Positions 48,606 through 63,202 of a DNA stretch of 64,000 nucleotides are shown here, one piece after another. Location: contig NZ_CP090977.1 of assembly GCF_021513255.1 (NCBI RefSeq), positions 3,162,001 through 3,226,000 on the forward strand. Reading direction: 5' to 3'. A program made the translations under genes and the position numbers. The notes beneath the pieces were generated by a model. The model was not told the DNA's origin. It worked only from the letters and a program-made list of their open reading frames with translations, and ran no database searches. Position 1 is the first letter of the stretch. The number at the start of each line of letters is the position of its first letter. Source of the DNA: Planococcus sp. 107-1 (lineage in GTDB: Bacteria > Bacillota > Bacilli > Bacillales_A > Planococcaceae).

Positions 48606-49148
48606 TTATTGGATTAACTTATAGTAAATTTCCACTTGCCGGCTGGTTTCAATGGTCCGGATTTTCTCTAAGTTGATTTCAAGCTCTTCCAACTGCTCAA
48701 AAAGCCGCAGCCCTTTTCCAAGAAGGATCGGCGCGATTGCGATTTGCAGTTCCTCGACAAGTCCGGCTTTCAGCGCTTGCCGGAAAACATCCGCACCGAG
48801 AATGAGCACATCTTTTTCTCCTGCTGCCGCTTTTGCCTGCTGGACTGCGCTTTCAATCCCATCGGAGACAAAGGTAAACTTTAATTGGCCGTTTTCTTTC
48901 GGGTGCGTTACCGGTGGATGATGGGTCATTACGAAGATTGGCACTTGAAACTCATAATTGTCTGCGTAGGCATCCGGTTCGCCTAAATCGAATGTCCGGC
49001 GACCAAGAATGACCGATCCCGTTCTTGCCATCATGTCATTGATTTCTTTGTTCGGTTCAAAGCTGGCATACAGTTTGTCCATTCCTCCGTTCCGGTCGTT
49101 CACAAAACCATCAAGCGACATGATCATTCCAAAACAGACTTTTGCCAT
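48606..49148 (-). CDS. Dihydrofolate reductase family protein (RibD C-terminal type)
   Basis: The 180-residue protein has the RibD C-terminal/DHFR-like fold: MIMSLDGFVNDRNGGMD at residues 8-24, GSVILGRRTFDLGEPDAYAD, then DVLILGADVFRQALKAGLVE and ELQIAIAPILLGKGLRLFEQ. These bind NADPH and a pterin- or pyrimidine-like substrate, although stand-alone members are mostly uncharacterised. AAGGAGG precedes the ATG. It is flanked by a terminator and transcribed alone. Confidence 0.85.
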   Translation of the reverse strand: MAKVCFGMIMSLDGFVNDRNGGMDKLYASFEPNKEINDMMARTGSVILGRRTFDLGEPDAYADNYEFQVPIFVMTHHPPVTHPKENGQLKFTFVSDGIESAVQQAKAAAGEKDVLILGADVFRQALKAGLVEELQIAIAPILLGKGLRLFEQLEELEINLEKIRTIETSRQVEIYYKLIQ

Positions 49149-49289: not shown

Positions 49290-50501
49290 ATGAAAATCAT
49301 TAAAGGTGCTTATAGTGACGCCAAAGTTTTTACAGATAATATCGATGAAGTGACGGTGTCTCAAATAGAAGGTTTTTTGAACGAGGAACTAACGAAGGAA
49401 GCAAATGTACGTATTATGCCGGATTGCCATGCTGGAAAAGGTGCGGTTATTGGTACAACCATGAAAGTGACTGACCGTGTCGTTCCGAATTTAGTAGGCG
49501 TAGATATTGGGTGTGGAATGCTTTGTGTAGAAATTAAAAAGGCCGATGTGGATTTTGCGAAACTGGATGCAGCTGTCCAGACGCTCGTTCCTTCCGGCCA
49601 ATCGATTCGACAAACCGCTCATGAATATATTAGCCACATCGACCTTGAGAAAGTGTTGGCCAACTTTTCAAAAGAAGCAGCCGCTCTTTCACTCGGCACG
49701 CTTGGCGGAGGCAATCATTTCATTGAAATGAACCAAACAGAAGATGGCCGCCTGTTTATGGTCATCCATAGCGGCAGCCGTCATTTAGGTGTACGCGTTG
49801 CGAATTACCACCAGAAAAAAGCCATTGAAAGCCTGACAAGCGATAAAGAAGGATTAAATGAAATGATTGCCCAGCTAAAAGCTGAAGGACGAGAGCGGGA
49901 AATTCAAGCCGCGATGAAATCTTATAAATCTGCGAAGCCGATCATTCCGAATGATCTTGCTTATCTACAGGGTTCCCTCATGGAAGATTATTTCAACGAT
50001 TTAAAGATTGCCCAGAGTTACGCCAAATGGAACCGGGCAGCGATGATGCAGGTGTTGTTGGAAGCGATGAATTTTGAAGAAGCTGGGCGCATCGATACCG
50101 TCCATAATTATATTGACTTGGACCATATGATTTTGCGAAAAGGCGCCATTTCAGCAAGAAAAGATGAACTTGTGCTGATTCCCATCAATATGCGCGATGG
50201 CTCCCTTCTTGCTAAAGGCAAAGGCAACGACGACTGGAACCAGTCCGGACCGCATGGCGCTGGCCGCATTCTGTCCCGGACGAAAGCCAAAGCGCTGCTG
50301 CAATTGGATGATTTCACCGATACGATGAAAGGCGTCTACACGACAAGCGTGAATCAGGACACCCTTGACGAGTCGCCATTCGCATACAAACCGATGAATG
50401 AAATTATCCAAAACACGCAAGAAACCATCGAGATCCAGTCCATTCTAAAACCTGTCTATAATTTCAAGGCAGCGGAATTCCAAGGCTGGAGAAGAAAATG
50501 A
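49290..50501 (+). CDS. rtcB: RtcB family RNA ligase
   Basis: The 403-residue protein carries the RtcB active-site blocks: MPDCHAGKGAVIG, VGVDIGCGM (Cys75, metal), GGGNHFIE, VIHSGSRHLG, and GPHGAGRILSR with the His that takes GMP (His322). RtcB joins RNA ends with 2',3'-cyclic phosphate to 5'-OH using GTP and Mn. No archease or rtcA gene is next to it. AAAGGAG precedes the ATG and a terminator follows. With Pnkp/Hen1 at 59-63 kb the window holds two RNA-sealing routes. Confidence 0.92.
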   Translation: MKIIKGAYSDAKVFTDNIDEVTVSQIEGFLNEELTKEANVRIMPDCHAGKGAVIGTTMKVTDRVVPNLVGVDIGCGMLCVEIKKADVDFAKLDAAVQTLVPSGQSIRQTAHEYISHIDLEKVLANFSKEAAALSLGTLGGGNHFIEMNQTEDGRLFMVIHSGSRHLGVRVANYHQKKAIESLTSDKEGLNEMIAQLKAEGREREIQAAMKSYKSAKPIIPNDLAYLQGSLMEDYFNDLKIAQSYAKWNRAAMMQVLLEAMNFEEAGRIDTVHNYIDLDHMILRKGAISARKDELVLIPINMRDGSLLAKGKGNDDWNQSGPHGAGRILSRTKAKALLQLDDFTDTMKGVYTTSVNQDTLDESPFAYKPMNEIIQNTQETIEIQSILKPVYNFKAAEFQGWRRK

Positions 50502-50578: not shown

Positions 50579-51620
50579 TCATTGATAAGGATTCACTGTG
50601 ACGCCTAAGGCCGATGCCCGCACCATCGGCATGTCTTCTAAAGTTTGCAGGTTCTCTTTCGTTCCCGTTACGACTGCACCGACGACTTGCACATCATCGG
50701 CCGTTAAGCGTTCGCCTTCACCTTTTAACAGGTCATGGATTCGTTTGTATTCGCTGTAATATTTACCGTTTTCAAGCGTCATCCCGTCTTGGATCCTATC
50801 CACAAACCCCTCTTCGCTTGTCGGCTGTTCTTCTTCGGTAAAGATGTCTTCGTCAAAAGAAAATTCTTCGATGCCATACACTTGATCTGAAAGTTCCGGG
50901 GAATTAACGAATTCCCCTTCGAATTTTTGATTCATCCGTTCCAGATCATCCGGGGAATACGTGTCAATCCAATACCATTTTAATGTGACGTCTTCCGGCA
51001 AACTTTCCCGGATTTCCTTGGGCGTATAGGCTTGGTCAAAAGACAAGGCGATTTCGGCGGACGTTTCTTCTGGGAAACTTTCCAATTCGCCTAGTCCATC
51101 TGCGAGTCCGGCATATTCCACTTCCGGATGATAAAAACCAAGCACACGCTGCTTCGTTTCCCGGTCATAATAGTTCATCAGCTCCGTTTCTTCGTCTTCC
51201 ACTGTGATATAGGAATGGTCGCCGGTAAACCCGCTTGACCCCGCCAAAAAGGCTGTAGGTCATCGTCTCTTCGCTCCAATCAACCGGAATTCCTTCAATC
51301 ACTTTATAGCGTTCGAACCTTAAAATGCTTTCAAACAAGCCATTGCTTTGCTGCTGAGGCCCCATCTCTTCAATATTCGGATCGGTGATCTGGCTGAATA
51401 ATTCAATGTCCCGCAACGCATTGGATTCGTGCCATCTCATAATCGATAGCCAAGCAATTCCGGAAGCGATGGTCAATAAACCCAGAACTACAACAGAAAT
51501 TAATACATTCCGAAAAACCGTTCTTCTTTTGGCTTTGTTGATGATCTTTCCAAATGAATCATTGGAAGGATCCTGCTTAAAAAGCTGTTCTAATTCTTTT
51601 TCTTTATGAGAACCTTTCAT
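50579..51620 (-). pseudogene. Anti-sigma factor with Sigma_reg N and C domains, frameshifted
   Basis: The first part (51165-51620) has a cytoplasmic start (ELEQLFKQDPSNDSFGKIIN), one helix VFRNVLISVVVLGLLTIASG and the beginning of the external domain. The second part (50579-51247) holds the Sigma_reg C-terminal domain (LGELESFPEETSAEIALSFD). The frames part at the C4/G4 run 51239-51242; removing one G restores YSLFGGSSGFTGDHSYITVE. This is the only break explained by an extra, not a missing, base. The joined chain is about 347 residues. The ATG at 51620 (AGGAGATGG upstream) overlaps the sigma gene. It should control the adjacent ECF factor. Confidence 0.8.
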
Positions 51621-52122
51621 GTCTTGCCATCTCCTTTTCGTACTGTTCCTTAAACGCTTTTCTCGCTCGGAACAGATAGGTTTTGAGCGTCCCTAAATTC
51701 AAGTCCAGCATTTCGGAAATCTCTGCATAACTTAATTCCATTTCGTATTTCATGAGCAATAATTGCTTTTGGAGAGGAGGCAATTGATCGAGCACCTGCT
51801 CAATTTCACTTCTCATCTCTCCTTGCCGGACAAAATCTTCCGGCAAAAACGAGTCATCGACAAATTCAAGATTCTCGAAAGTCGTATGTATTTCTTTTTT
51901 CTGTTTCCGGCACAAATCGTAATAATGATTGACGGCTACCCGGAACAGCCAGCTATAGGCTTTTGCCCCGTCCACTGAATCGATGTACAGTATAAGCCGG
52001 TACACTGCTTCCTGCACGGTATCTTCCGCATCGCTTTTGCTCGCGCCGATCTTCATCAAATACTTAAAGATGATGTCTGTCTTTCCATGCAATGCTGCCA
52101 TCAACTCTTCCCGAGGATTCAA
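51604..52122 (-). CDS. ECF-type RNA polymerase sigma factor
   Basis: The 172-residue protein has region 2 (KSDAEDTVQEAVYRLILYID, then AYSWLFRVAVNHYYDLCRK) and region 4 (LPPLQKQLLLMKYEMELSYA, then EISEMLDLNLGTLKTYLFRA). Its region 4 differs from the other two ECF factors in the window, so it belongs to another subgroup. Start is TTG at 52122 after GGAAGGAGGGG. The anti-sigma gene follows with a 17-bp overlap. Confidence 0.9.
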   Translation of the reverse strand: MNPREELMAALHGKTDIIFKYLMKIGASKSDAEDTVQEAVYRLILYIDSVDGAKAYSWLFRVAVNHYYDLCRKQKKEIHTTFENLEFVDDSFLPEDFVRQGEMRSEIEQVLDQLPPLQKQLLLMKYEMELSYAEISEMLDLNLGTLKTYLFRARKAFKEQYEKEMARHERFS

Positions 52123-52406
52123 TTGCTCCCCTCCTTCCGCTTATAAGACATTTTCATTTGTAAAAAGTTAACATCGTTTCTGAAATTATTTTATGCCGTT
52201 CAGTTGAAGGCATAGAAAAAGGAGAAGCGAAGCTGCGAAGCTTCGGCTCTCCCTATCGGTTTTACTTTTGGAATAAAAGATAACAGGAAACTGTAGAGTC
52301 TTCTCTACTTTACCATTCGATTTACGATGGTTCATCTTCCTTTTTTTAGAAAAATGAAACTTTATTAGCAGTTAATATGTAGAGTAAAGAAAGAAGGAGA
52401 TGAGCG

Positions 52407-52541
52407 ATTATTAACAGCATTGCAGAAGCTAACATCAATTACGGAGATTGGGTTTTCACTTTCTTTATCTTATTCGGAATCATCGGGTTGATTCGGCTGA
52501 TTTTGTTGGTAGTCAAATCTCGGAAAAAATCGACGCGATAG
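52407..52541 (+). CDS. Possible 44-residue membrane protein with an ATT start
   Basis: The frame IINSIAEANINYGDWVFTFF, then ILFGIIGLIRLILLVV and KSRKKSTR, looks like a real one-helix protein with a basic tail. AAGAAGGAGATGAGCG precedes it with ideal spacing, but the codon at that spot is ATT (52407) and the codon two before is a stop; there is no ATG, GTG or TTG that would include the helix. Either a rare AUU start is used, or the start has mutated. Confidence 0.4.
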   Translation: MINSIAEANINYGDWVFTFFILFGIIGLIRLILLVVKSRKKSTR

Positions 52542-52573
52542 CTTTTGCGTCTACTTTTTCCGTGGCTTTTCTT

Positions 52574-52873
52574 CTATTCTTCCACAATCACTTCCAAAGC
52601 CAGGATATACGGGAATTCAGTAGTGGTGTCCACAGGCACGACCTTGACCTGGTCTCCTTCTTCCAGTTCTTCGTACGAACTGATTTTTCCGCTGAACTCA
52701 GTAATATCGGTAAGATGGATCTCCTCTTTTTCCGATTTCTCTTCATCTATCGTCACGATGAAACTCGTATCTCCTTTTTCCGCTACAGTTCCCTCGTAGT
52801 TTCCACAAGCTGCAAGTCCCAAAGCTAAAAAAGCCAAAACTGCGATACTGGCTACCTTCTTCGTCCTCTTCAT
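52574..52873 (-). CDS. Small lipoprotein of unknown function
   Basis: The 99-residue precursor starts MKRTKKVASIAVLAFLALGL with lipobox LAAC (Cys22). The mature part of about 78 residues is acidic and beta-rich (TSFIVTIDEEKSEKEEIHLT, then VPVDTTTEFPYILALEVIVE), similar in style to DUF3221-type lipoproteins with one OB-like fold. GGCGGGAGATC precedes the ATG at 52873. No close partner is evident. Confidence 0.72.
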   Translation of the reverse strand: MKRTKKVASIAVLAFLALGLAACGNYEGTVAEKGDTSFIVTIDEEKSEKEEIHLTDITEFSGKISSYEELEEGDQVKVVPVDTTTEFPYILALEVIVEE

Positions 52874-52948
52874 GATCTCCCGCCTCTCTCTTTGGTTTTT
52901 CTTAAACACCTCTCTCACATTTTCCCTTCCTTTATCCAGCTCCAGATT

Positions 52949-53797
52949 TCACCACGGACTGTAGGAAGAATTCCATCCAATTTCGGAAAGGAAGTCATCA
53001 AACGGCGGGAGCTTTTTCTTTACTTGTCGGTACGGCAAAAGAATTTCTTCTCTGAACCTCTGAAATAAAGCCGAATCCATTTCAGGGAATTTCTGCTCCA
53101 ATCCGAGTTTGCTTCTTTTGTCTATGGCGCTAAGTGCATCCACTGCATAAACCGTCATGACCGGGAATTCCTGCTCAAGAGCAGCGTAATTTGAATAAAA
53201 AGCAGTGATATAGCCATTGAGTTCAAAATAAGGTTCGTCCGGTTGAAATCCTCCCGTATATTTCCGCTCATGCTGCGGCATGAAAGAAGTGGCACTTTCG
53301 GTCTCCCAAATGCCGGCCATCATGGCGAATGCTGCAAATGCCGCTCGCCGGGTTTGGTCATCCGGGTCGGCAAAATGCAAATCATAGCGATGAAATTCGA
53401 ATGTCCAGCCTCCATGGAAAGAAGCGGGTTCAAAAACCTTCAGAACATCTTCCACTTTTTCTGTAAGTGATTTCTCCTTTTCTGGCGCTTTGTTTTCGTC
53501 ACTAAAAGATTCCGTAAGGATTCCCATAATGTCCAAGGTATCCAAGTTGCTGCCAAGATAACCGATCTGTCCATATGCGTTCACGGCTTGGGGTTCTGGC
53601 AGTCCGAGTTCAAGCGCTTGTTTATAGGAAGAAATCGCTTCCTCGTCTTTCGCCAGGATGTCGCAGCTCCAGGCATACTCATAGCGCAGCAATGCATCTT
53701 CCGGATCCGCGGATATCAGTTCTTCAAGAACATGGTGGGATTCGAACAACTTGCCTTCTCTTCGCAACTTTAAAGCGTGATTCAGAGAATTTTCCAT
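52949..53797 (-). CDS. TPR domain fused to an unknown C-terminal domain
   Basis: Residues 1 to about 80 are a tetratricopeptide region (MENSLNHALKLRREGKLFES, then DAALLRYEYAWSC-like and EEAISSYKQALELGLPE). From about residue 110 a different domain follows: FHGGWTFEFHRYDLHFADPD, then RRAAFAAFAMMAGIWETESA and LNGYITAFYSNYAALEQEFP. It ends with Pro-rich PPFDDFLSEIGWNSSYSPW. I do not recognise the second domain. Start is ambiguous between ATG 53797 and 53806; the first has better spacing to GAGGG. The gene appears intact. Confidence 0.65.
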   Translation of the reverse strand: MENSLNHALKLRREGKLFESHHVLEELISADPEDALLRYEYAWSCDILAKDEEAISSYKQALELGLPEPQAVNAYGQIGYLGSNLDTLDIMGILTESFSDENKAPEKEKSLTEKVEDVLKVFEPASFHGGWTFEFHRYDLHFADPDDQTRRAAFAAFAMMAGIWETESATSFMPQHERKYTGGFQPDEPYFELNGYITAFYSNYAALEQEFPVMTVYAVDALSAIDKRSKLGLEQKFPEMDSALFQRFREEILLPYRQVKKKLPPFDDFLSEIGWNSSYSPW

Positions 53798-53941
53798 TTC
53801 GCTCATTCCCTCTTTTGGTTTTCTTTCTTTTACGCATTGAAAAGGGCAAGCGTTTCATTATCCTGGAAATAAATCCAGAATAGTCAAACTTCTTATAGTA
53901 TTTCCCTCTCGTTGCGATAGAATTAGCTTAGGAGGTGGCGG

Positions 53942-54217
53942 ATGAAGAAATTTTTGCTTTCTATTTTAGGCGGGCTCTTAATAGGCGGCGTGCTGTCTTT
54001 CTTTTTGTGGGATTACAGCGCCCCAACGTTTGAAGTGATTAATGACAATGGAGAAAACTATTCCATCACAGAAATGGATTTTGATTTTGTGTTTAATGCG
54101 TCTTTACTGATTCTCGCTTTTTCAGTTCTTCTTTATGTGATCTGGACCCTTGTCGATAAAAAGAAAGACGAGAAATTTTTAGCGGAGTATGAGCGTGATA
54201 AAAAATCCGGCCGTTAG
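53942..54217 (+). CDS. Two-helix membrane protein of unknown function
   Basis: The 91-residue product has a first helix (FLLSILGGLLIGGVLSFFLW), an external loop of about 30 residues with ITEMDFDFVFNAS, a second helix (LLILAFSVLLYVIWTLV), and a charged tail, DKKKDEKFLAEYERDKK. AGGAGGTGGCGG precedes the ATG. Another membrane protein gene follows 20 bp later; the two likely form one operon. Confidence 0.65.
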   Translation: MKKFLLSILGGLLIGGVLSFFLWDYSAPTFEVINDNGENYSITEMDFDFVFNASLLILAFSVLLYVIWTLVDKKKDEKFLAEYERDKKSGR

Positions 54218-54237
54218 ATGCATGAGGAGGGATTTTG

Positions 54238-54522
54238 ATGGAGCTTTTGGTTTTAGCCGTCTATATCGCTTTGTTGAGCTTTGCGGTAAAACTGTTTGCC
54301 GGGAACAAATCGCACAGGTGGATTCATGCTGGCTATCTCACGGCATTTTTGCTGCCGATTCCTGTCTGGTTCCTTTTTATGAACATTGCCGGAAGAGTAA
54401 CGGGCGGCGGCATTGGCGCGAGTGCAGGTGGCTTTGTCCATGCCATCGCAACTTCTATCGCAGGGTTTGTTTTTCTTTATATCGGTTTCAATTCGAAACG
54501 CTTTGAAAACAGCAGCCGTTAA
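54238..54522 (+). CDS. Three-helix membrane protein of unknown function
   Basis: The 94-residue product has helices LLVLAVYIALLSFAVKLFAG, AGYLTAFLLPIPVWFLFMNI, and a Gly/Ala-rich last one (GFVHAIATSIAGFVFLYIGF). GAGGAGGGA precedes the ATG at 54238. The 3' end overlaps the convergent DUF1871 gene by 4 bp. No family recognised. Confidence 0.65.
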   Translation: MELLVLAVYIALLSFAVKLFAGNKSHRWIHAGYLTAFLLPIPVWFLFMNIAGRVTGGGIGASAGGFVHAIATSIAGFVFLYIGFNSKRFENSSR

Positions 54523-54767
54523 AAAGTGGGGGCCGTTATTTTGATGGCTGCTGCATAGCACTCTTCCAGTTTTACTTCTTCGCCGAACCATTCCAGAAAT
54601 ACTTGTTTAATCATGCGTGCTGCTTCCTCGACTGAATGGATTTCTTTTAACTGTTTGGCAATATCCGCTATTTCCGGATGGTATTCGTCTTCAGGACATT
54701 CCATCGCAAGCAAGCCTATCGGATCCCATTCATTAATCACCCGTTTAATTTCATTGAAGTTTTCCAT
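54519..54767 (-). CDS. DUF1871 family protein
   Basis: The 82-residue protein has the DUF1871 pattern: INEWDPIGLLAMECPEDEYH near residues 11-30, then EIADIAKQLKEIHSVEEAAR and IKQVFLEWFGEEVKL. It is a small helical soluble protein. Relatives are often found among contact-dependent or immunity-type genes, but no function is proven. AAAAGGAGAG precedes the ATG. Confidence 0.82.
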   Translation of the reverse strand: MENFNEIKRVINEWDPIGLLAMECPEDEYHPEIADIAKQLKEIHSVEEAARMIKQVFLEWFGEEVKLEECYAAAIKITAPTF

Positions 54768-54840
54768 ATTCTCTCTCCTTTTATTTTCATTTTATCAAAC
54801 GATCAAAACGTTCAAGACAGCTGACCTGAACAGAGTGTAC

Positions 54841-54978
54841 TCATTTTTGAAACTCTTCCATAAATAGCAGAAGGATAAAGCCTCCTATCAATAGAAATCC
54901 CAAAATCAACCAGATCAGCAGCAGCCCTGACACGGCCATAAATGCCTTTTCAAACCATTTACAGTTTAATAGCTTCAT
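54841..54978 (-). CDS. Short membrane protein (45 residues)
   Basis: The short frame starts MKLLNCKWFEKAFMAVSGLL and continues in one long hydrophobic stretch (LIWLILGFLLIGGFILLLF) to the end MEEFQK. GAGGTGAAC precedes the ATG at 54978. It lies upstream of the DUF1871 gene in the same direction. Family unknown. Confidence 0.55.
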   Translation of the reverse strand: MKLLNCKWFEKAFMAVSGLLLIWLILGFLLIGGFILLLFMEEFQK

Positions 54979-55081
54979 TTGTTCACCTCATTTTATCGGA
55001 ATTCTCCTTGTTTAATGAAACGAAGAAAACCGGAAAAAGTTACAGCCCCGCAAACTGATGCCGCCATCAAATCCCCAAAAT

Positions 55082-55105
55082 AAAAAGCTGCCATAGGCAG
55101 CTTTT
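55082..55105 (-). terminator. Terminator of the secreted protein gene
   Basis: AAAAAGCTGCC (55082-55092) pairs with GGCAGCTTTT (55096-55105) at the stop codon of the gene ending at 55104. Confidence 0.7.
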
Positions 55106-55721
55106 ATTTTTTGTTGAGTTTATTCAATTCTTTCTCCAGCCCGTTCAAGTCTGTGAATTCGATGACACTGATTTTCCCCTTTTGCGGCAAACTCGCTTTT
55201 CCTCGGTAATTGAACACGGAGGATTTCTTATTTGGATTCGTGTAAGTCACTTGGAAAGTGAAATTATACGATTTTGTTCTTTTCATATTCTGTTTGATTT
55301 TGATATTGGACACTTTTAAGCTGAAGTCCCCTGGATAGATGCTCGCCATGAACGCATCTCCTGTATAAGTGAACACATCATAGCCTTTTTCAGTGAAATA
55401 AGGTGCATAGGTTTTTTCCGTATAAGCCAATAAATTCAAGTTTGTCGGTGATTTCAAATACTCCTGGTACTGTTCTTCCGTCAAATCTTTCGATAGCTCT
55501 TTCATTGCTGCATTCCACAGCTCGCGGTACTTTTTATCCGGTCCGTTGAATTCTTTTTCAATGACGGTTTGAATGGCCTCCCGGTTGTCGAGCTTCACTT
55601 CCGCAGCTTGTACGTTTTCTGTGAGCCCTTTCGGTAAGCTGCTTAATACGAGTAGACAAGCCGCCACCAGTAACATTACATTTCTTACGTTCTTCAAAAG
55701 CCCCTTTTTATTTCTCTCCAT
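55104..55721 (-). CDS. Secreted protein, paralogue of the lipoprotein at 31631
   Basis: The 205-residue precursor has a signal peptide (MLLVAACLLVLSSLPKGLTE) cut probably after VQAA. The mature part (DNREAIQTVIEKEFNGPDKK, YAPYFTEKGYDVF, YNFTFQVTYTNPNK, GKISVIEFTDLNGL) is clearly related to the lipoprotein at 31631-32263, but without a lipobox Cys in the expected place. So one paralogue is membrane-tethered and the other is released. AGGAGGAAG precedes the ATG. Function unknown. Confidence 0.75.
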   Translation of the reverse strand: MERNKKGLLKNVRNVMLLVAACLLVLSSLPKGLTENVQAAEVKLDNREAIQTVIEKEFNGPDKKYRELWNAAMKELSKDLTEEQYQEYLKSPTNLNLLAYTEKTYAPYFTEKGYDVFTYTGDAFMASIYPGDFSLKVSNIKIKQNMKRTKSYNFTFQVTYTNPNKKSSVFNYRGKASLPQKGKISVIEFTDLNGLEKELNKLNKK

Positions 55722-55818
55722 CTTTCTTCCTCCTTGTTCACTCTTTTCTTTTAAAAGAGTTGTTACCCGAATAGACGGATGACTTTAAAAAAGGAGTCGC
55801 TTTTTAAAACTTTTTATT

Positions 55819-56787
55819 TTATTTCAAAAAACGATCGAGGAATGTGAAAACATCGTCGAGATTTTCTTTCGCGTTAAAAGGTTCGCCGCCATGAACCGCA
55901 TCTTCGAACAGGTTGAACTCCACTTTGTCTTCGCCTAAAGTCTTCGTCAGCTCTTCTGCAAAATCAATGGATTGCTGAGCGGGTACATTCGGATCTGCTG
56001 AGCCATGCTGAATTAAGAAAGCCGGATCGTTTTTCGTGATATACGTTTCGGGATTCGCCTTTTCGACAGCATCCACTTTTTCGGCAATGCTGCCGCCTAA
56101 AAATTTGCTTTCAGGTGATTCGGCGTCTTTTCGCTCGCCTATTTTCGGCGCAATTCCCGATTCTTCAAACTGCTCATCCATCTTGAGGAAGTCGATCTGG
56201 CCGTACCAATCAACCACGGCCTGCACATCTGAAGAATAGCTGGCATTTGCCATGTTCTTGCTTTCCAATGCATCATCTTCCCCGCTAGTTCCTGCGAGCG
56301 CTGCTAAATGCCCGCCGGCACTGCTGCCCCATGCGGCAATTTTTTCAGGATCCAAATTATATTCTTCAGCATTCGCTTTTAAATAACGGATGGCTGCTTT
56401 TACGTCGCTGATGGCTGCGGGAAACAAGGACTCGCCTGACAGGCGGTAATTGACTGCTGCCACCGCATACCCGCGATTCACACCTTCTAACATGGGTTCA
56501 ATGTCTTTTCCGGTTTTATCCCCTTGCATAAAGCCGCCGCCGTGAATGGCTACGATCACCGGGAACGGACCCTCTCCTTCATTTGGCAAATAGAGGTCGA
56601 GTTTCTGCGTTTCCCAAGGACCGCCATAGGCTACATCCAAATGGGTATTTTCAACGAACGAAGCATCAAGGGCTTCATTGGAAGTTTCACTGGCTTCCAC
56701 GGCCACATCGTCCACCGAATCGGGTGAACATCCCGCAAGCAGCGCTGCCAGCGAGAAGGATAAGACAGCTACGGCAGATTTTTTCAT
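55819..56787 (-). CDS. Alpha/beta hydrolase lipoprotein (esterase)
   Basis: The 322-residue precursor has lipobox LLAGC (near residue 20), so the enzyme should sit on the outer face of the membrane. The hydrolase domain has IVAIHGGGFMQGDK (oxyanion HGGG), AAWGSSAGGHLAAL with the nucleophile Ser, HGSADPNVPAQQS with the acid, and DAVHGGEPF with the His. It resembles BD-FAE-like and carboxylesterase groups that deacylate carbohydrate or small esters. The ATG at 56787 follows AAAAAGGAGTG. Substrate unknown. Confidence 0.85.
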   Translation of the reverse strand: MKKSAVAVLSFSLAALLAGCSPDSVDDVAVEASETSNEALDASFVENTHLDVAYGGPWETQKLDLYLPNEGEGPFPVIVAIHGGGFMQGDKTGKDIEPMLEGVNRGYAVAAVNYRLSGESLFPAAISDVKAAIRYLKANAEEYNLDPEKIAAWGSSAGGHLAALAGTSGEDDALESKNMANASYSSDVQAVVDWYGQIDFLKMDEQFEESGIAPKIGERKDAESPESKFLGGSIAEKVDAVEKANPETYITKNDPAFLIQHGSADPNVPAQQSIDFAEELTKTLGEDKVEFNLFEDAVHGGEPFNAKENLDDVFTFLDRFLK

Positions 56788-56904
56788 ACATACAACACTC
56801 CTTTTTGTTTTGTCGGTTTTTCTATAACCAAACCATAACAAAACAATGTGGCACAAAAATGGCAGAAAAACGATGCAAAACGCACGTTTTCCTGCCGATC
56901 GATT

Positions 56905-58143
56905 TCATGCTTTTTTTAAAGTGATCGTAAAAGTGGTACCGGAACCCGGCTTACTGTCGACCTTGATTTTTTCGCCGAGCTGTTCCATGATTTCATGCGC
57001 GATGGCAAGGCCAAGGCCGCTGCCGACGCTTGTATGGGATAAGTCTTCTTTATTGAACCGCCCGAATATTTGCGGAAGAATCTCTTTTGAAATTCCCGGG
57101 CCGTTGTCGGCTACCGTAATCTCCGCTTTTCTGCCGATTGTTTTCGCATCAATTGTCACTTGTCCCTGGATTGGCGTGAATTTGAACGCATTATCCAAAA
57201 GAATCGTCAGCACTTGGACAATCCGGTCTTTATTGGAATAGACAGCCGGAAGGTTTTTGGCTTCCTCGGTTATCCGGAACCGCAGTTCCATATCGTCTGC
57301 TAATATTGCAAAAGGCTCTGCGACTTCCTCAAGAACTTCGTTGGCATCCACTACCGATTTTGTGAAAGCCGTCTTTTTATGCTGAAGCCGCGACAGTTCC
57401 AGCAAATCCGCAATGAGCTTTTCGAGACGCGCACTTTCCCTCAAAATGATGCTGTAGTACTGATCCACTTTCTGCGGGTCCGTTACGACATGATCCGATA
57501 AGGTTTCCGTCAGGGCTTTTATAGAAGCAAGCGGTGTTTTCAACTCGTGGCTGATGTTCGCCACGTAGTCTTTGCGCATTTGCTCCAATTCGTTTTTCTG
57601 CCGGATAAATGTCCAAAGAAAAACGAGAATAATGATAGTCCCCACTGCCAATGTCACGAAAAAAACCAAATAGAAACCGTTCAATGCCGCTTGATAAGCG
57701 CGAGCTTCTTTCAACAGGTAGATCCCCCCGGTTACTTTTCCCCCTTCGGTAAGCGGCTGTCCAATGATGATGGCTTGAGAAGAGAAGCCCGGCACTTCCC
57801 GAATCTCCGCTTCTGTTTTTCCGCTGATGACTTTAGGCAGATGCGAAACGAGTTTTTCGTTCACTTGCTCGTCTTCAGCAACCGGCGGAACCCGTTCATC
57901 TTTGTAGACATCGATTTCCTTGCCATAAACGTCATAGGCTTTGATGAGAAAATCATCGGTCCTGCTGATTTTTTCGCCTTCTACCACTTCTTCCCCGACC
58001 AGGGAAAGCGACGGCTGAAGTTCTTCGAATTTGGATTCGATGAAATAATGCTTAATCGCTAAAGCACCGAGCAATTGGCCGGAGATGAAAATGGCTAAGA
58101 TGACAAAGGCGATCCATAGATTACTGGAAAATAGCCGCTTCAT
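56905..58143 (-). CDS. PhoR/ResE-like sensor histidine kinase
   Basis: The 412-residue kinase has a first helix (WIAFVILAIFISGQLLGAL), an external sensor of about 120 residues, a second helix near residue 165, then the DHp box YVANISHELKTPLASIKALT and the ATPase blocks (VLTILLDNAFKFTPIQGQV, VADNGPGISKEILPQIFGRF, GSGLGLAIAHEIMEQLG). It should autophosphorylate on the His of HELKTP and pass the phosphate to the regulator upstream. Its start overlaps the regulator's stop. The sensor has no known ligand domain. The pair lies between the esterase and the RNA repair cassette. Confidence 0.88.
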   Translation of the reverse strand: MKRLFSSNLWIAFVILAIFISGQLLGALAIKHYFIESKFEELQPSLSLVGEEVVEGEKISRTDDFLIKAYDVYGKEIDVYKDERVPPVAEDEQVNEKLVSHLPKVISGKTEAEIREVPGFSSQAIIIGQPLTEGGKVTGGIYLLKEARAYQAALNGFYLVFFVTLAVGTIIILVFLWTFIRQKNELEQMRKDYVANISHELKTPLASIKALTETLSDHVVTDPQKVDQYYSIILRESARLEKLIADLLELSRLQHKKTAFTKSVVDANEVLEEVAEPFAILADDMELRFRITEEAKNLPAVYSNKDRIVQVLTILLDNAFKFTPIQGQVTIDAKTIGRKAEITVADNGPGISKEILPQIFGRFNKEDLSHTSVGSGLGLAIAHEIMEQLGEKIKVDSKPGSGTTFTITLKKA

Positions 58144-58835
58144 AAGTTTGCCTCGAATTTATAGCCAACGCCGTAAATCGATTTAATGGAAAATTCCGGG
58201 GAAGCGGCCGCAACTTTTTGGCGAATGCGCTTGATCATCGTATCCACGGTACGGGTATCACCCAAATAATCATAGCCCCATACTTTATACAGCAGCTCTT
58301 CCCGGTTTATGACCGTTCCCGAATTTCGGACCAGAAACACTAATAGCTCCGTTTCTTTAGCAGTCAATTCCACAAGTTCACCATTAATGCGCACCTCGTA
58401 TCCTTCTACATCTATTGAAAGATTGCCGCCCGTTAAACGTTGAGGGTTTTCTTTTTTCGGCTGCACCCGCTTCAAGATGGTTTTGATGCGGACCACCACT
58501 TCACGGGGCGAGAAAGGTTTGGTGATATAATCATCTGCCCCAATTTCGAGGCCAATAATCCGGTCGATTTCCTCACTTCGCGCACTCAGCATCAGAATGG
58601 GAATGTCGCTCGTTTTACGGATTTCTTTGCACACTTCCGTGCCGAACATTCCAGGCATCATAATGTCCAGCACCACTAAATCGAACTGGTTCTCTGCCAG
58701 GATTTGAAGTGCCTGTTCCCCGTCATATGCGGAAACACTTCCCATCCCTTCAGCCTGCAAGTAGGCATTGAGGCTCTCATGGACAGCAATATTATCATCA
58801 CAAACCAACACCATTATGCGTGGATCCATCACCAT
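58140..58835 (-). CDS. Response regulator, OmpR/PhoB family
   Basis: The 231-residue protein has a receiver (VLVCDDNIAVHESLNAYLQA, phospho-Asp in LVVLDIMMPGMFGTEV, MLSARS, YITKPFSP) and an OmpR-type winged helix (VELTAKETELLVFLVRNSGT, then RTVDTMIKRIRQKVAAASPE, and YGVGYKFE). It pairs with the kinase that follows. GGAGGATGT precedes several in-frame starts: ATG 58835, GTG 58832 and ATG 58829; the choice is uncertain. Confidence 0.88.
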   Translation of the reverse strand: MVMDPRIMVLVCDDNIAVHESLNAYLQAEGMGSVSAYDGEQALQILAENQFDLVVLDIMMPGMFGTEVCKEIRKTSDIPILMLSARSEEIDRIIGLEIGADDYITKPFSPREVVVRIKTILKRVQPKKENPQRLTGGNLSIDVEGYEVRINGELVELTAKETELLVFLVRNSGTVINREELLYKVWGYDYLGDTRTVDTMIKRIRQKVAAASPEFSIKSIYGVGYKFEANL

Positions 58836-58966
58836 ACATCCTCCATTCGTCAAAATTGCTTTCACTGAATTTTATCCAAAGCCTTTATCTTCTATGTTTC
58901 CATATAATCAACTATAAATCAATCTTGTCACTTTTTTGCGCTTTTTTTGCGTATACAGCAAAGAAA

Positions 58967-58993
58967 AAAGGAACTTCGAGGTGAAGTTCCTTT
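58967..58993 (-). terminator. Terminator of the Hen1-Pnkp operon
   Basis: AAAGGAACTTC (58967-58977) pairs exactly with GAAGTTCCTTT (58983-58993), followed on the minus strand by T runs. Confidence 0.75.
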
Positions 58994-59058
58994 CGACTTA
59001 TAGATAATAAATTGATTTGATGAACTTGAAACGTTTTCTACTTCTTTAAGCCATTTTG

Positions 59059-61647
59059 TTATAATCTCGGATCTACAGGATCAGATTCTAAAGCAAGTGC
59101 CCCTAATACACATTCGTGGACCCGTTCAATCGTTTCCCCGTTTACATAGCGACTGATTCCCTCTATCCCCAAAGTAAATTCTTTTAAGGCTAATTTCTGC
59201 TTTTTGCCGGTGTTTCGGTTTTTCAATCTTATTAAATTAGCCGGTTCTAAATAATCCATGCCGTAAATGATTTTCAAATAGCGGCTGCCCCTTACCTTAA
59301 TAGCCGGCTGCAACAGCTTCCCTCTCTGCCTGGCTATATAGAACTCCGGTTTGATAATGATGCCTTCATGGCCGTCTTCCGTTATTTCTTTCCACCAGTC
59401 AATCACTTCCGCTTCGCTGGCTTCATCGGAAATCATTTTGTATTCCGTCTCCACAAACAAATCAGAATGGCTGGCCAGATGCCGGTTCATTTCCATATGC
59501 CAAGTATGCGGCTTGTCGAAGAATGTCCGGTTACTGTGGGCAAGGATATGGAAAGGCGCAATTTGAATGGCCTCTACTGAATCGACATCCCAGCAATATT
59601 TTTGAAAAACGTCATTGAAATCTTGCGCATTTCCAAGTTTTTGTTCGTACTCCTCCAGCCAATGCTGCAATTCTGTGTTGCTTTTCGCAGCTGCAGCCAG
59701 CTTGTCTCTCAAAAACGTCCGGTCTAATAAGGCGTTCTCTGCTACATGCGCGTACTGGCTGCTGATTAATTCTTTGGCTTTTAAATTCCACGGCATGATT
59801 TCGGCATCCAATAGAACAAACTCAGTTTCTTTCTCCTCAAAATAGTTCATCCGCTTTAAATCCTCGTTGATCTGTCTCAACAATTGCGCTTCCGTTTCGC
59901 GGTCGAAAAAGCGCTTTCCGGTTCTCGTATGGATTGTCCCTAAAGAACGGATACCGGTATGCTTTTCGGAAGCTTCCTCGTCTTTGAATAAAAACAGAAT
60001 AGCGCGGCTGCCCATATGTTTCTTTTCTGCAATCATGGTATGGATTCCATTTGCTCTGAAATACTCGATTGCTTCTTTTGGATGCTCCAAATAGTTTTCC
60101 ATCGCAGAAGGATTTGGTGTTGGACTCATTGTTGGCGGAATGTAAACCAATTGCTCGATCGGAACCGTAAAATGCGACACTGTATCAATTGCCGGTTTCA
60201 CCAGTTCTGGCGGAATCCGCACTTCCCCCAACTCTTCCGTCAAAACTGAATAACCTTTCAGGAATTTGGCAATATCGGGAGGATTCAATCGATTCTTTTC
60301 CCATTCTATAAGCGGATTATCAGGATGTCCGGAGTAATCCTGCTTTGCCTCGACTGCTGAAAATTCCCTTTCCGGGTATCGGTATGCCGTTAATTGACCA
60401 CCGAAAACAACTCCTTGGTCGATATTGATCGTCTGATTGACCAAAAGCGGCTTCGGTTTCGGGTCATGCCCCCAGACAACCAATACACTTTTGTGATGGC
60501 CGATTGTCCAGTCTTTTCGGACTGGCCGCCCATTTTCGCGGGATTCGTCGGAATCTCCATAACGGCAGAAGTCACTGATGGTTTGGGATTGTTTGCCGAT
60601 AAATTCATCTTTTATGCCTGCATGCGTGACGATCACCACCGGTACGCCGTTTTTCTGAAAGACGTAGTGGGAGGGAGCATTTAAAAGAAAGTCTTTTAAT
60701 TGCTGTTTTATTTCCTGAAGCTTTTCAATTCCCACTTTTTGTTCGTATACACGGAATTCTTCTTCCACTTTTTCATCCCCATGGCTTAATACGACCTGAC
60801 GACCATCCAGCCACCGGGCAATCTTCCAGCCATGATTGCTGTCAACCATCAGCGCAAGTCCTTTTTGGACATGCTGATAAAAGAACATCATTGTCTTAAG
60901 CGACTCAGGCCCTCGGCTCATTACATCACCGACGGAAACGAACCGGCGTCCTTCGGGGTGTATGTAAAACCCTTCTGAATTTTCTTCATACCCAAGTTTG
61001 GTTAACAGCTCTATTAGCTCCTCATAGCATCCGTGAATATCGCCAATCACATCGATGCCTTTATCGATATCCAGTTCAATCGGGTTTGTTCTCCGGAAGA
61101 ATTCAACTTCTTCTTCTTTCAGTGTATGAACGGCTGTAAAGCCTTCTTTTTTAATAAAGCGCTTTTCATTTCTGAAGATCTGGTACTGCTGCTTAATCCG
61201 ACGCTTTCCTCTCGGGTTGTCGCGTACTTCATCGCGGGCAGTTAGAATGCGTTCATTTACATCAAAGACGATTGCTTGAATGGGCACATGATTTTCTTTC
61301 GCCAGTTCAATGTATCTTTTACGGTCCTCAGAACGAAGGTGCGTTGCATCGACAAAAACCAGTTTATTTAAGCGGCATCTCGCTTTAATCACGTTGTCCA
61401 TCAAGGTAAATGCCTCTTTTGACAGCTCCTGATATTCATCCATCAAACCATTCGCTTCATCTTGCGGCCGGTTTTTCCAGTCAATGAATTCCAGATCGCC
61501 AACCCTCATACGGAAGTCATCAGAACTGACCACTTCAGATGGCAGAACAGCCTTTTCCTCAATTTGTCTTTTTAGGAACGTAGATTTTCCGCTGTTGGAC
61601 GGACCAATCAGCAAAACGATTCCTGCGTGCGGCAAGCCAATTCTCAT
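59059..61647 (-). CDS. pnkp: Bacterial polynucleotide kinase-phosphatase-ligase (RNA repair)
   Basis: The 862-residue protein is the three-part bacterial Pnkp. A 5'-kinase has P-loop GPSNSGKST at residues 15-23. A calcineurin-like 2',3'-phosphatase has GDIHGCYEE at 202-210, GDVMSRGP at 240-247 and NH at 271-272. A C-terminal ligase domain has the AMP-binding Lys543 in EKKHMGSRAI. It heals broken RNA ends (5'-OH and 2',3'-cyclic phosphate) and, with Hen1, seals them. Its ATG overlaps the stop of hen1 (ATGA). Length is normal for the family (about 860). The likely job is repair of RNAs cut by ribotoxins. Confidence 0.95.
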   Translation of the reverse strand: MRIGLPHAGIVLLIGPSNSGKSTFLKRQIEEKAVLPSEVVSSDDFRMRVGDLEFIDWKNRPQDEANGLMDEYQELSKEAFTLMDNVIKARCRLNKLVFVDATHLRSEDRKRYIELAKENHVPIQAIVFDVNERILTARDEVRDNPRGKRRIKQQYQIFRNEKRFIKKEGFTAVHTLKEEEVEFFRRTNPIELDIDKGIDVIGDIHGCYEELIELLTKLGYEENSEGFYIHPEGRRFVSVGDVMSRGPESLKTMMFFYQHVQKGLALMVDSNHGWKIARWLDGRQVVLSHGDEKVEEEFRVYEQKVGIEKLQEIKQQLKDFLLNAPSHYVFQKNGVPVVIVTHAGIKDEFIGKQSQTISDFCRYGDSDESRENGRPVRKDWTIGHHKSVLVVWGHDPKPKPLLVNQTINIDQGVVFGGQLTAYRYPEREFSAVEAKQDYSGHPDNPLIEWEKNRLNPPDIAKFLKGYSVLTEELGEVRIPPELVKPAIDTVSHFTVPIEQLVYIPPTMSPTPNPSAMENYLEHPKEAIEYFRANGIHTMIAEKKHMGSRAILFLFKDEEASEKHTGIRSLGTIHTRTGKRFFDRETEAQLLRQINEDLKRMNYFEEKETEFVLLDAEIMPWNLKAKELISSQYAHVAENALLDRTFLRDKLAAAAKSNTELQHWLEEYEQKLGNAQDFNDVFQKYCWDVDSVEAIQIAPFHILAHSNRTFFDKPHTWHMEMNRHLASHSDLFVETEYKMISDEASEAEVIDWWKEITEDGHEGIIIKPEFYIARQRGKLLQPAIKVRGSRYLKIIYGMDYLEPANLIRLKNRNTGKKQKLALKEFTLGIEGISRYVNGETIERVHECVLGALALESDPVDPRL

Positions 61648-62996
61648 CCTGCATTCACCTTCCTTCTAAATAGGCACATTTGCGTCGGCGCTCCCTGCTC
61701 CGGGTGTTCTTCGCCAATTCCTGTAAATTCAAGTTCATAGATTCCTTTCGTATTGCGTTCAGCACACCAGCTGCGAAATTCCGCCCGTGTCCATTCAAAC
61801 CGATGGTCATCATGGCGGAAATGCTCGGCCATATCATAGATTTCATTGTATTCACGGTTAGGAGTCGTGACAATCAGGGATTTCGGGCTGTATAAATGAA
61901 GAAGTGTATCAAATACTTTCGGAAGCCGCATTTCATCAATATGCTCAATCACTTCGCATAGAATCATCAAATCTTTATCTTTTAAACGTTCATCGTAATA
62001 GAACAAAGAACCCCATAAGGTTTCCGGCTCAACGAAAGCTTCTTGGCCTTTCGCTTTTTCAAAACGTTTTTTCGCTTTGATAATTTCAACTTCAGAGGGC
62101 TCAACTGCAAGAACTTCTCTGACCCCGCTGACAAACCCTAATTTGACAGCCAGTTTCCCTTCGCCTGAACCAAAGTCCACGACCGTTTTGGGATGCAGCG
62201 TTTCTGCAGTTTCCGCAATTTTTTCATACCGCAATTCATTTAACCGTGATTTTTTCACAGGTTCCGCTTTCGGAGCTTCTGCAGTGGTATTTTCAACGAG
62301 ACTGTATACTTCCTTAAAGCGCAGGGCTCGGCGGTATATCACTTCTCTCAGGGGGTGCTTTTCCAGCCATCCTTCGCCGTACCTCTCCAGCTTTTCAATC
62401 TCCTTCTCGTCAATGAAATAATGTTTGTAGTCGTCGATTACTGGAATCAGGACAAATAAATGACGCAAGGAATTTTGTAAAGTTTGGATTCCCGCCAAAG
62501 AAATCATGCGTACTTGGCTGCTTTCTTTTAAACGAAAGGAATAGTGAAGCTCCGGTTGGGTAATTTCCACTCCATAGCCCAGCGGTTCGAACAATTCTCT
62601 TAGTTGGCGGTCTGAAAGCGTTGAATTTACTGGCCCGAGTTCGAGCGTAAAGGCGAAGGGATGCTCCACCCATTCCATCTGTTCTTCTTTAGGCTGGCCA
62701 TTTAAAGCAGTCCCCAACGCAGAACGGATTAAGGATAAAAAGATGCTGCTCGCTGCAAATTCCCGGTCGTTTATATAATGGGTGATGTCATACGAATTTG
62801 TTTTATTTTGAATCAGTCCAATCGGGTCCGGCGTGACAAAAATTGTTGCCTCCAGTTCATCTTCTGTGAACTTGCTATAGAAAAAGCGCACTAAGTGGCC
62901 TTTTTGATTTCTTTCATATAGATTGTTTGGATTTTTAGACAACAGATGAGAAATCGACTTCACATTTTCACCCGTTGCACGAATCGTCAATTGCAT
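61644..62996 (-). CDS. hen1: Hen1 3'-terminal RNA ribose 2'-O-methyltransferase
   Basis: The 450-residue protein has an N-terminal half that in relatives helps activate Pnkp ligase, and a C-terminal methyltransferase with VDFGSGEGK at residues 273-281 for AdoMet. The Mn-binding set ILCEVIEHIDEM (Glu348, Glu351, His352) is followed by FRHDDHRFEWTR. It methylates the 2'-OH at the 3' end of broken RNA before sealing, so the repaired site cannot be cut again at the same place. The ATG at 62996 follows GATGGGGGA. It overlaps pnkp by 4 bp. Confidence 0.93.
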   Translation of the reverse strand: MQLTIRATGENVKSISHLLSKNPNNLYERNQKGHLVRFFYSKFTEDELEATIFVTPDPIGLIQNKTNSYDITHYINDREFAASSIFLSLIRSALGTALNGQPKEEQMEWVEHPFAFTLELGPVNSTLSDRQLRELFEPLGYGVEITQPELHYSFRLKESSQVRMISLAGIQTLQNSLRHLFVLIPVIDDYKHYFIDEKEIEKLERYGEGWLEKHPLREVIYRRALRFKEVYSLVENTTAEAPKAEPVKKSRLNELRYEKIAETAETLHPKTVVDFGSGEGKLAVKLGFVSGVREVLAVEPSEVEIIKAKKRFEKAKGQEAFVEPETLWGSLFYYDERLKDKDLMILCEVIEHIDEMRLPKVFDTLLHLYSPKSLIVTTPNREYNEIYDMAEHFRHDDHRFEWTRAEFRSWCAERNTKGIYELEFTGIGEEHPEQGAPTQMCLFRRKVNAG

Positions 62997-63144
62997 AATA
63001 AATCCCCCATCTCTCACTTCATATAAGATAAAACCAATATATCATATTAGCTGGAAATGATTTTATCGATGTCCATTTAACTCCACTCATTCTTTCACTT
63101 TTTAAACATGCTCTCATCATTTCATTTATATAAAACGAAAAAAG

Positions 63145-63178
63145 CCAGGAAAAAACCAATTTGAGGTTTCCTCCTGAC
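63145..63178 (-). terminator. Terminator downstream of the fructose-bisphosphatase gene
   Basis: An imperfect stem (GCCAGGAAAAAACC against GGTTTCCTCCTGAC) is followed on the minus strand by six T, 25 bp past the stop. Confidence 0.55.
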
Positions 63179-63202
63179 TTCATTCGTTGGCTGAATTGTA
63201 AA

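What the first reader, a model, noticed from the sequence alone, without database searches (positions are those of the whole stretch)
59059..62996. Hen1-Pnkp RNA repair cassette together with RtcB in one neighbourhood
The window has the two-gene Pnkp/Hen1 system (translationally coupled, all active-site motifs present) and, about 9 kb away, an intact RtcB ligase (49290-50501). They use different chemistry: 5'-kinase, phosphatase and ATP ligase with 2'-O-methylation, versus direct 3'-cyclic-phosphate/5'-OH joining with GTP. Pnkp/Hen1 is known to repair RNAs cut by ribotoxins and to mark the site against re-cutting. Having both suggests defence against RNA-cleaving toxins or phage-triggered anticodon nucleases.
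Basis: partly seen in the sequence, partly recalled or inferred. Interest (0 to 1): 0.72.

Follow-up and report, generated by a model that had tools for sequence, protein, structure and literature searches.

The report
Two neighbouring but separate RNA-repair tools
A Planococcus chromosome carries the known Hen1-Pnkp RNA-repair gene pair and, 8.6 kb away on the other strand, a separate RtcB RNA-ligase gene; both are predicted to mend cut RNAs, but the Hen1-Pnkp pair likely moved between species without RtcB, so this is probably two familiar repair tools side by side and not one new system.

Summary
Hen1 (61644-62996, -) and Pnkp (59059-61647, -) overlap by 4 nt and pass their NCBIfam cut-offs; RtcB (49290-50501, +) is an intact, divergent member of its Pfam family. 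They are not one unit: hen1-pnkp lies between two terminator-like hairpins, and rtcB is on the other strand behind about 12 predicted genes. The clearest new result: window and Planococcus ruber DNA are 98-100% identical over about 58,982-63,080, which is the hen1-pnkp unit, against 88-94% in the adjoining genes; rtcB is at the background level (90%). So hen1-pnkp was probably exchanged recently as a cassette, without rtcB. Across the class the two loci still lie close more often than chance: within 20 kb in 4 of 13 clades with chromosome-sized contigs (3 of 12 without the window's own clade; P 4e-4 to 2e-3). At least three RtcB subfamilies are involved, and a Paenibacillus sub-clade has rtcB directly behind pnkp. 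That keeps a functional link alive. RNA repair as an answer to ribotoxins is established. No PrrC/RloC-type or RelE/ParE-type match was found in this genome; other RNases were not searched. New member of a known kind.

The parts
61644..62996 (-). hen1: Hen1_L N-terminal domain plus 3'-terminal RNA ribose 2'-O-methyltransferase (450 aa; open frame extends to 63017)
   Evidence: TIGR04074 363.3 bits, cut-off 340; Hen1_L and methyltransferase domains; PDB matches 3jwg, 4dqz
59059..61647 (-). pnkp: 5'-kinase, metallophosphoesterase and ATP-dependent RNA ligase domains (862 aa)
   Evidence: TIGR04075 785 bits, cut-off 750; PDB matches to ligase 4drf/3ty5, phosphatase 4j6o, kinase 4gp6; motifs
58982..63080 (-). 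inferred exchanged block: near-identical to P. ruber DNA, coincides with the hen1-pnkp unit
   Evidence: third-codon mismatches Hen1 1 of 451, Pnkp 24 of 863, against FBPase 103 of 645, response regulator 58 of 242, kinase 116 of 413
63141..63181 (-). terminator-like hairpin between the fructose-bisphosphatase gene and hen1 (17 pairs, T-rich tail)
   Evidence: consensus match only: 6 such sites found in the region, shuffle mean 5.2
58966..58994 (-). terminator-like hairpin after pnkp, before the response-regulator gene (12 pairs)
   Evidence: consensus match only
49290..50501 (+). rtcB: divergent RtcB-type RNA ligase, separate unit on the opposite strand
   Evidence: PF01139 207 bits; catalytic motifs; P. 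ruber copy 90.3% identical DNA
48606..49148 (-). RibD_C-domain gene divergent from rtcB; also beside rtcB in P. ruber and G024
50579..58865 (.). about 12 predicted genes between rtcB and pnkp (sigma-factor regulator, ECF sigma factor, esterase, two-component kinase and regulator, others); those at 50579-54767 were not found in the P. ruber locus read
   Evidence: my choice among the ORFs

Best explanation
The window holds two separate RNA-repair loci of known kinds, a hen1-pnkp pair and an rtcB gene, which are predicted to mend RNAs cut by ribonucleases by two independent routes. Route 1 (inferred from characterised homologues): Pnkp phosphorylates the 5'-OH end and removes the 3' phosphate, Hen1 opens the Pnkp ligase and methylates the terminal 2'-OH, and Pnkp seals the break, leaving a junction that resists the same toxin. 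Route 2 (inferred): RtcB would join the same kind of ends directly, with GTP and without a mark. The hen1-pnkp unit was likely swapped between the window's lineage and that of P. ruber by recombination as a free-standing cassette, while rtcB followed the chromosomal background. The 8.6 kb proximity is therefore a loose, recurrent clustering and not an operon.
For: Family matches and motifs. Terminator-like hairpins on both sides of hen1-pnkp, rtcB on the opposite strand, about 12 genes between. Identity block against P. ruber confined to hen1-pnkp: 25 of 1314 third-position mismatches against 277 of 1300 in the FBPase, regulator and kinase genes, Fisher P 8e-62; rtcB at 90.3%. A second pair (G003/G039) has Hen1 79% and Pnkp 87% third-position identity against 51-59% for the four genes upstream and 47-58% for the next three downstream. 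Context differs between clades. Mechanism from PMC4411300 and PMC3973293 passages.
Against: Proximity is above chance: 4 of 13 clades within 20 kb, 3 of 12 without the window's clade, P 4e-4 to 2e-3, while the ArsB control has 0 of 15 (Pnkp) and 0 of 11 (RtcB) clades within 20 kb, though 2 of 15 within 40 kb. Co-occurrence in the family is also high: 39 of 57 Pnkp genomes (3 of them with partial or disrupted pnkp) carry RtcB against 24 expected. Both suggest more than accident. The exchange signal is absent or weak in the P. glaciei-group, g11 and G026/G031 pairs; in G003/G039 two further genes (c9, c12) reach 85%. In the window/P. ruber alignment a few short stretches outside the block are also near-identical (200-bp bins of 96-98% in the esterase gene and 98% in FBPase).
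Confidence: 0.74

Rival explanations
1. RtcB and Hen1-Pnkp form one cooperating RNA-repair module whose genes tend to gather, RtcB sealing fast and Hen1-Pnkp healing ends that RtcB cannot use and marking them.
For: Recurrent closeness in five clades (window group, P. glaciei group, g11, g21, g55) with at least three RtcB subfamilies; rtcB directly downstream of pnkp in a Paenibacillus sub-clade; RlaP, a nucleotidyltransferase of RNA-repair systems, within 0.8 kb of hen1-pnkp in 3 P. glaciei-group genomes and 2 Paenibacillus loci.
Against: No shared transcription unit in the window; hen1-pnkp probably exchanged without rtcB; unlinked by more than 200 kb in 10 genomes of the same family and by more than 500 kb in all 8 g44 genomes measured; 5 of 13 Planococcus genomes with intact Pnkp have no RtcB match.
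Confidence: 0.2
2. Both loci sit in regions that tolerate accessory genes, so they are close only because patchy genes share insertion regions; there is no functional tie.
For: The genes at 50579-54767 are absent from the P. ruber locus; a DDE transposase gene lies 3.6 kb from rtcB; the gene set c11-c12-c9-c13 lies near hen1-pnkp in G003/G039 and near rtcB or its remnant in G032/G017.
Against: ArsB, another accessory gene, is not within 20 kb of Pnkp in any of 15 clades or of RtcB in any of 11; but it is one control only.
Confidence: 0.3
3. The Pnkp phosphatase is inactive because of the GDVMSRG/DSNHG changes, so RtcB does the actual ligation.
For: Motif differs from 4j6o.
Against: The Asp, His and Asn positions of the motifs are kept, and all 38 proteins aligned share the SRGP and SNHGWK forms, so a broken enzyme is unlikely.
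Confidence: 0.04

Closest known systems
Bacterial Pnkp-Hen1 RNA-repair complex (as in Clostridium thermocellum and Anabaena; species recalled)
   Same: Same two genes in one operon (PMC4411300 passage), same domain order, same kinase, ligase and methyltransferase motifs
   Different: A subfamily just above the family cut-offs, with GDxxSRG and DSNHGW in the phosphatase
Pnkp1-Rnl-Hen1 complex (PMC4411300, passages seen)
   Same: Same chemistry spread over subunits
   Different: There the ligase is a separate protein (Rnl) and hen1 lies far from the pnkp1-rnl operon; here ligase and kinase-phosphatase are one chain next to hen1
RtcB ligase
   Same: PF01139 family and catalytic motifs
   Different: Weak match to solved RtcBs (best 39.5 bits); the two genes flanking it are a RibD_C and a sigma-regulator gene
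RNA-repair systems surveyed by Burroughs and Aravind 2016 (not held; cited in PMC6514570 and PMC7824862, passages seen)
   Same: RtcB, other ligases and RlaP in neighbourhoods that answer RNA-cutting effectors
   Different: Here the loci are only loosely near each other; RlaP is absent from this genome

Membership tests
bacterial Pnkp (TIGR04075) | whole-protein score above curated cut-off | tested here: met
   785 against 750 bits
bacterial Pnkp (TIGR04075) | kinase P-loop, ligase lysine motif | tested here: met
   GPSNSGKST, EKKHMGS in an alignment of 38
bacterial Pnkp (TIGR04075) | canonical GDxxDRG and GNHD phosphatase motifs | tested here: inconclusive
   GDVMSRG and SNHG; Asp, His and Asn positions kept
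bacterial Hen1 (TIGR04074) | score above cut-off, N-terminal Hen1_L plus methyltransferase domain | tested here: met
   363.3 against 340 bits; Hen1_L 179.4 bits
Pnkp-Hen1 complex | same operon | tested here: met
   4-nt overlap, same strand; co-transcription not measured
Pnkp-Hen1 complex | Hen1-dependent ligation and 2'-O-methyl mark | not testable with these tools
   needs biochemistry
RtcB ligase | PF01139 above cut-off and Cys/His/guanylated His motifs | tested here: met
   207 against 27 bits; DIGCG, GNHF, HSGSRH, HGAGR aligned to the archaeal RtcB chains 4dwr/1uc2, VHN by motif only; residue roles recalled
Rtc operon | rtcA, archease or rtcR beside rtcB | tested here: not met
   the two flanking genes are RibD_C and Sigma_reg_C; genome-wide rtcA/archease not searched
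RtcB-PrfH (RtcB2) | TIGR03073 / PRK09588 above cut-off and prfH neighbour | tested here: not met
   108.1 of 271.8 and 140.7 of 407 bits; the two flanking genes are not prfH
anti-phage defence system (PADLOC) | credible match to a model | tested here: not met
   RtcB none; Pnkp and Hen1 only weak mad8/mad2 matches, E 8e-4 and 3e-4

The most novel reading that the evidence does not exclude
RtcB and Hen1-Pnkp are partners in a two-tier RNA-repair response in Bacilli: at least three RtcB subfamilies have repeatedly been drawn near hen1-pnkp (4-18 kb in two Planococcus groups, 7-10 kb in genus g21, 22-35 kb in genus g11, directly behind pnkp in Paenibacillus g55), and hen1-pnkp cassettes are swapped between species at a fixed site as if under selection by changing ribotoxins.
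Probability: 0.25. Interest if true: 0.55.

Novelty: new member of a known kind. Interest (0 to 1): 0.33.

Why it matters
Both ligation routes would use the same toxin-cut ends (2',3'-cyclic phosphate and 5'-OH), so a genome that keeps both raises the question of which route wins and why. The above-chance closeness, the Paenibacillus hen1-pnkp-rtcB order and the sharply bounded exchange of hen1-pnkp give concrete genomes in which to test whether the two routes cooperate, compete or merely coexist.

Tried and rejected
Rejected: (1) one operon or regulon, because strand, terminator-like sites and about 12 intervening genes speak against it. (2) The two-component system beside pnkp as a regulator: it is next to hen1-pnkp only in the window and P. 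ruber among the Planococcus loci compared. (3) A resident anticodon nuclease as the reason: AAA_13 at E <= 1e-20 in 1 of 69 genomes and not in the window's; ParE/RelE none in the own genome; other RNases not searched. (4) Phage or plasmid origin: no plasmid DNA match, protein matches below 60% identity in 35 plasmid records, and only partial matches below 60% in 9 phage records. (5) Rfam elements in 40000-64000: none at gathering scores. (6) Insertion signs at the cassette edges: no shared 10-mers, direct or inverted, between 58850-59075 and 62990-63260.

Statistical limits: 70 genomes hold both genes (39 in the family set, 31 in the class set). One search kept the 41 with both on one contig and dropped 27 with them on different contigs and 2 with a disrupted pnkp (G002, about 350 kb; G025, about 1.4 Mb). 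Dropping different-contig genomes favours short distances, so the fairer test uses only contigs holding positions beyond 2.3 Mb (13 clades, 25 genomes) and, without the window's clade, 12 clades and 24 genomes. Clades and distance limits were chosen by me after seeing the data; distances were taken as linear. Co-occurrence tests are not corrected for descent; in the genus alone P is 0.012, or 0.024 if the contig-end copy in G040 is counted. The ArsB control is one family; one search left out seven same-contig genomes of it by oversight, all 90 kb or more apart, added.
Full report
WHAT IS THERE. The window lies in one 3.51 Mb contig of a Planococcus close to P. ruber: G021 of the same genus has a contig of the same length as the P. 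ruber record, and its Pnkp is 99% identical to the window's. hen1 (61644-62996, -) and pnkp (59059-61647, -) overlap by 4 nt. Both pass the NCBIfam cut-offs (363.3 of 340; 785 of 750 bits), have the expected Pfam domains and match solved Hen1 and Pnkp domain structures. rtcB (49290-50501, +) scores 207 bits in Pfam (cut-off 27), but below the cut-off of all four NCBIfam RtcB models it matches, and only 39.5 bits to the best solved RtcB; its catalytic motifs are present. All 38 Pnkps aligned share SRGP and SNHGWK. That the Asp, His and Asn positions retained are the catalytic ligands is recalled, not from a call.

ONE UNIT OR TWO. hen1-pnkp lies between a 17-pair terminator-like hairpin (63181-63141) after the fructose-bisphosphatase gene and a 12-pair one (58994-58966) before the response-regulator gene. 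The number of such sites in the region (6) is near the shuffle mean (5.2), so this is suggestive only; the promoter-like sites are likewise at the shuffle level. rtcB is on the other strand, divergent from a RibD_C gene, with about 12 predicted genes between it and pnkp. Those at 50579-54767 were not found in the P. ruber locus, where the distance is 4.1 kb instead of 8.6 kb.

EXCHANGE OF HEN1-PNKP. Aligning the window with P. ruber gives 98-100% identity per 200-bp bin from about 58,982 to 63,080; the adjoining response regulator is at 89.5% and FBPase at 94.1%. Third-codon mismatches are 1 of 451 (Hen1) and 24 of 863 (Pnkp), against 103 of 645 (FBPase), 58 of 242 (regulator) and 116 of 413 (kinase); pooled, Fisher P 8e-62. 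A few single bins outside the block are also high (96-98% in the esterase gene, 98% in FBPase). RtcB, at 90.3% DNA identity and 77% third-position identity, is at background level. The simplest reading is a recent replacement of hen1-pnkp between the lineages, or gain from a common donor at the same site, not including rtcB. A second pair, G003/G039, shows Hen1 79% and Pnkp 87% third-position identity against 51-59% in the four genes upstream and 47-58% in the next three downstream, although genes further away reach 70% (c11, c13) and 85% (c9, c12). The three P. glaciei-group pairs, the three g11 pairs and G026/G031 show no clear excess. I found no repeats at the cassette edges.

LINKAGE. In the genus, 13 of 46 genomes have Pnkp over the cut-off (G002 and G025 hold disrupted copies, and G040 a copy cut by a contig end) and 15 of 46 have RtcB (G017 only a part). 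Of the 8 with both, 5 are linked within 20 kb: G000 8.6, G021 4.1, G004 17.4, G007 17.9 and G013 15.8 kb. G026, G027 and G031 have the genes on different contigs. The RtcB of G004/G007/G013 is about 49% identical to the window's, that of G026/G031 about 24%. In the family, 57 of 261 genomes have Pnkp and 111 of 261 have RtcB; 39 have both (3 with partial or disrupted pnkp), against 24 expected (Fisher P 8e-6, not corrected for descent). In genus g11 the distance is 22-35 kb in 4 of 5 genomes (the fifth has different contigs); in 10 other genomes of the family it exceeds 200 kb. In the class, 48 of 398 genomes have Pnkp; the 39 of these 48 not covered by the family search were searched for RtcB and 31 of 39 have it. 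On contigs holding positions beyond 2.3 Mb, 4 of 13 clades are within 20 kb (expected 0.16-0.29, P 1e-5 to 1e-4); without the window's own clade, 3 of 12 (expected 0.15-0.28, P 4e-4 to 2e-3). The ArsB control is within 20 kb of Pnkp in 0 of 15 clades (2 of 15 within 40 kb) and of RtcB in 0 of 11. So closeness is above chance, but the contexts are unrelated.

NEIGHBOURS ELSEWHERE. In genus g55, which includes Paenibacillus nuruki (its RtcB and the Pnkp part read in G626 are 100% identical to L087), an rtcB of another subfamily (26% to the window's) follows pnkp directly, with gaps of about 0.1 kb, in G303 and G545; hen1-pnkp-rtcB in a row was read in L087. Of 16 such rtcB genes, 15 loci were fetched: 4 have the C-terminal half of pnkp upstream and 1 a shorter stretch; the other 10 have none in the 1.4 kb read, and all 10 share a downstream flank, 9 of 10 also the upstream one. 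RlaP, a nucleotidyltransferase family of RNA-repair systems, sits within 0.8 kb of hen1-pnkp in the 3 P. glaciei-group genomes and in two Paenibacillus loci. It is present in 14 of 46 Planococcus genomes, and the window's genome has none. PMC6514570 and PMC7824862 (passages seen) describe RlaP and RtcB as parts of systems that answer RNA-cutting effectors, citing Burroughs and Aravind 2016, which is not held.

HOW IT LIKELY WORKS. From PMC4411300 (passages) and PMC3973293 (one passage): Pnkp-Hen1 repairs ribotoxin-cut RNA, Hen1 is needed for ligation, and its 2'-O-methylation protects the junction from re-cutting. For this window that is inferred from homology. RtcB joining 3'-phosphate or 2',3'-cyclic phosphate ends is described in PMC7824862. 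Both routes would use the same ends, so they may overlap or compete. No damage source was identified: AAA_13 at E <= 1e-20 is absent from the own genome (1 of 69 genomes positive) and ParE/RelE is absent; MazF and other RNases were not searched.

LITERATURE. A search for papers holding Hen1, Pnkp and RtcB listed 3; further searches, whose lists were capped (15 of 21, 14 of 14, 12 of 106 and 15 of 56 papers), showed no title on linked RtcB and Hen1-Pnkp genes. I opened passages of four papers only, and the library lacks the main survey, so I make no claim that the link is unpublished.

VERDICT. The neighbourhood is loose and probably not a unit of transfer. The above-chance clustering and the Paenibacillus gene order keep a functional tie possible.

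Noticed in passing
58982-63080: Sharp-edged 98-100% identity to P. ruber over hen1-pnkp inside an 88-94% background, a likely recombination signature.
   Followed up: yes
L105 3183-6894 (G111): An rtcB gene in two pieces with about 2.5 kb between them that holds a reverse transcriptase/intron maturase ORF (group II intron type).
   Followed up: partly
L041, L037, L044 with L042, L038, L045 (P. glaciei group): RlaP nucleotidyltransferase beside hen1-pnkp, a gene that I read as nucleotidyltransferase-like (not tested) on the other side, and rtcB 16-18 kb away: a fuller RNA-repair neighbourhood than in the window.
   Followed up: partly
L087 8469-13882 (Paenibacillus nuruki): hen1, pnkp and rtcB in a row on one strand.
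   Followed up: partly
own genome G000:C1:416480-417747 and 2304424-2305126: ArsB and the PrpE-like phosphatase are each split over two frames, and completeness is 94% against 99-100% for the other 45 Planococcus genomes; the assembly may contain indel errors.
   Followed up: no
44564-45679: DDE transposase gene 3.6 kb from rtcB.
   Followed up: no
50579-51620: Two overlapping ORFs of which the second carries the sigma-factor regulator C-terminal domain; possibly one gene split by a frameshift.
   Followed up: no
47556-48389: A gene of unknown function near rtcB whose 36-44% relatives lie upstream of hen1 in G003, G026, G027 and G039.
   Followed up: partly
L016/L046 (G025) and L017/L047 (G002): Disrupted pnkp copies in two Planococcus genomes, which suggests the system is also lost.
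   Followed up: no
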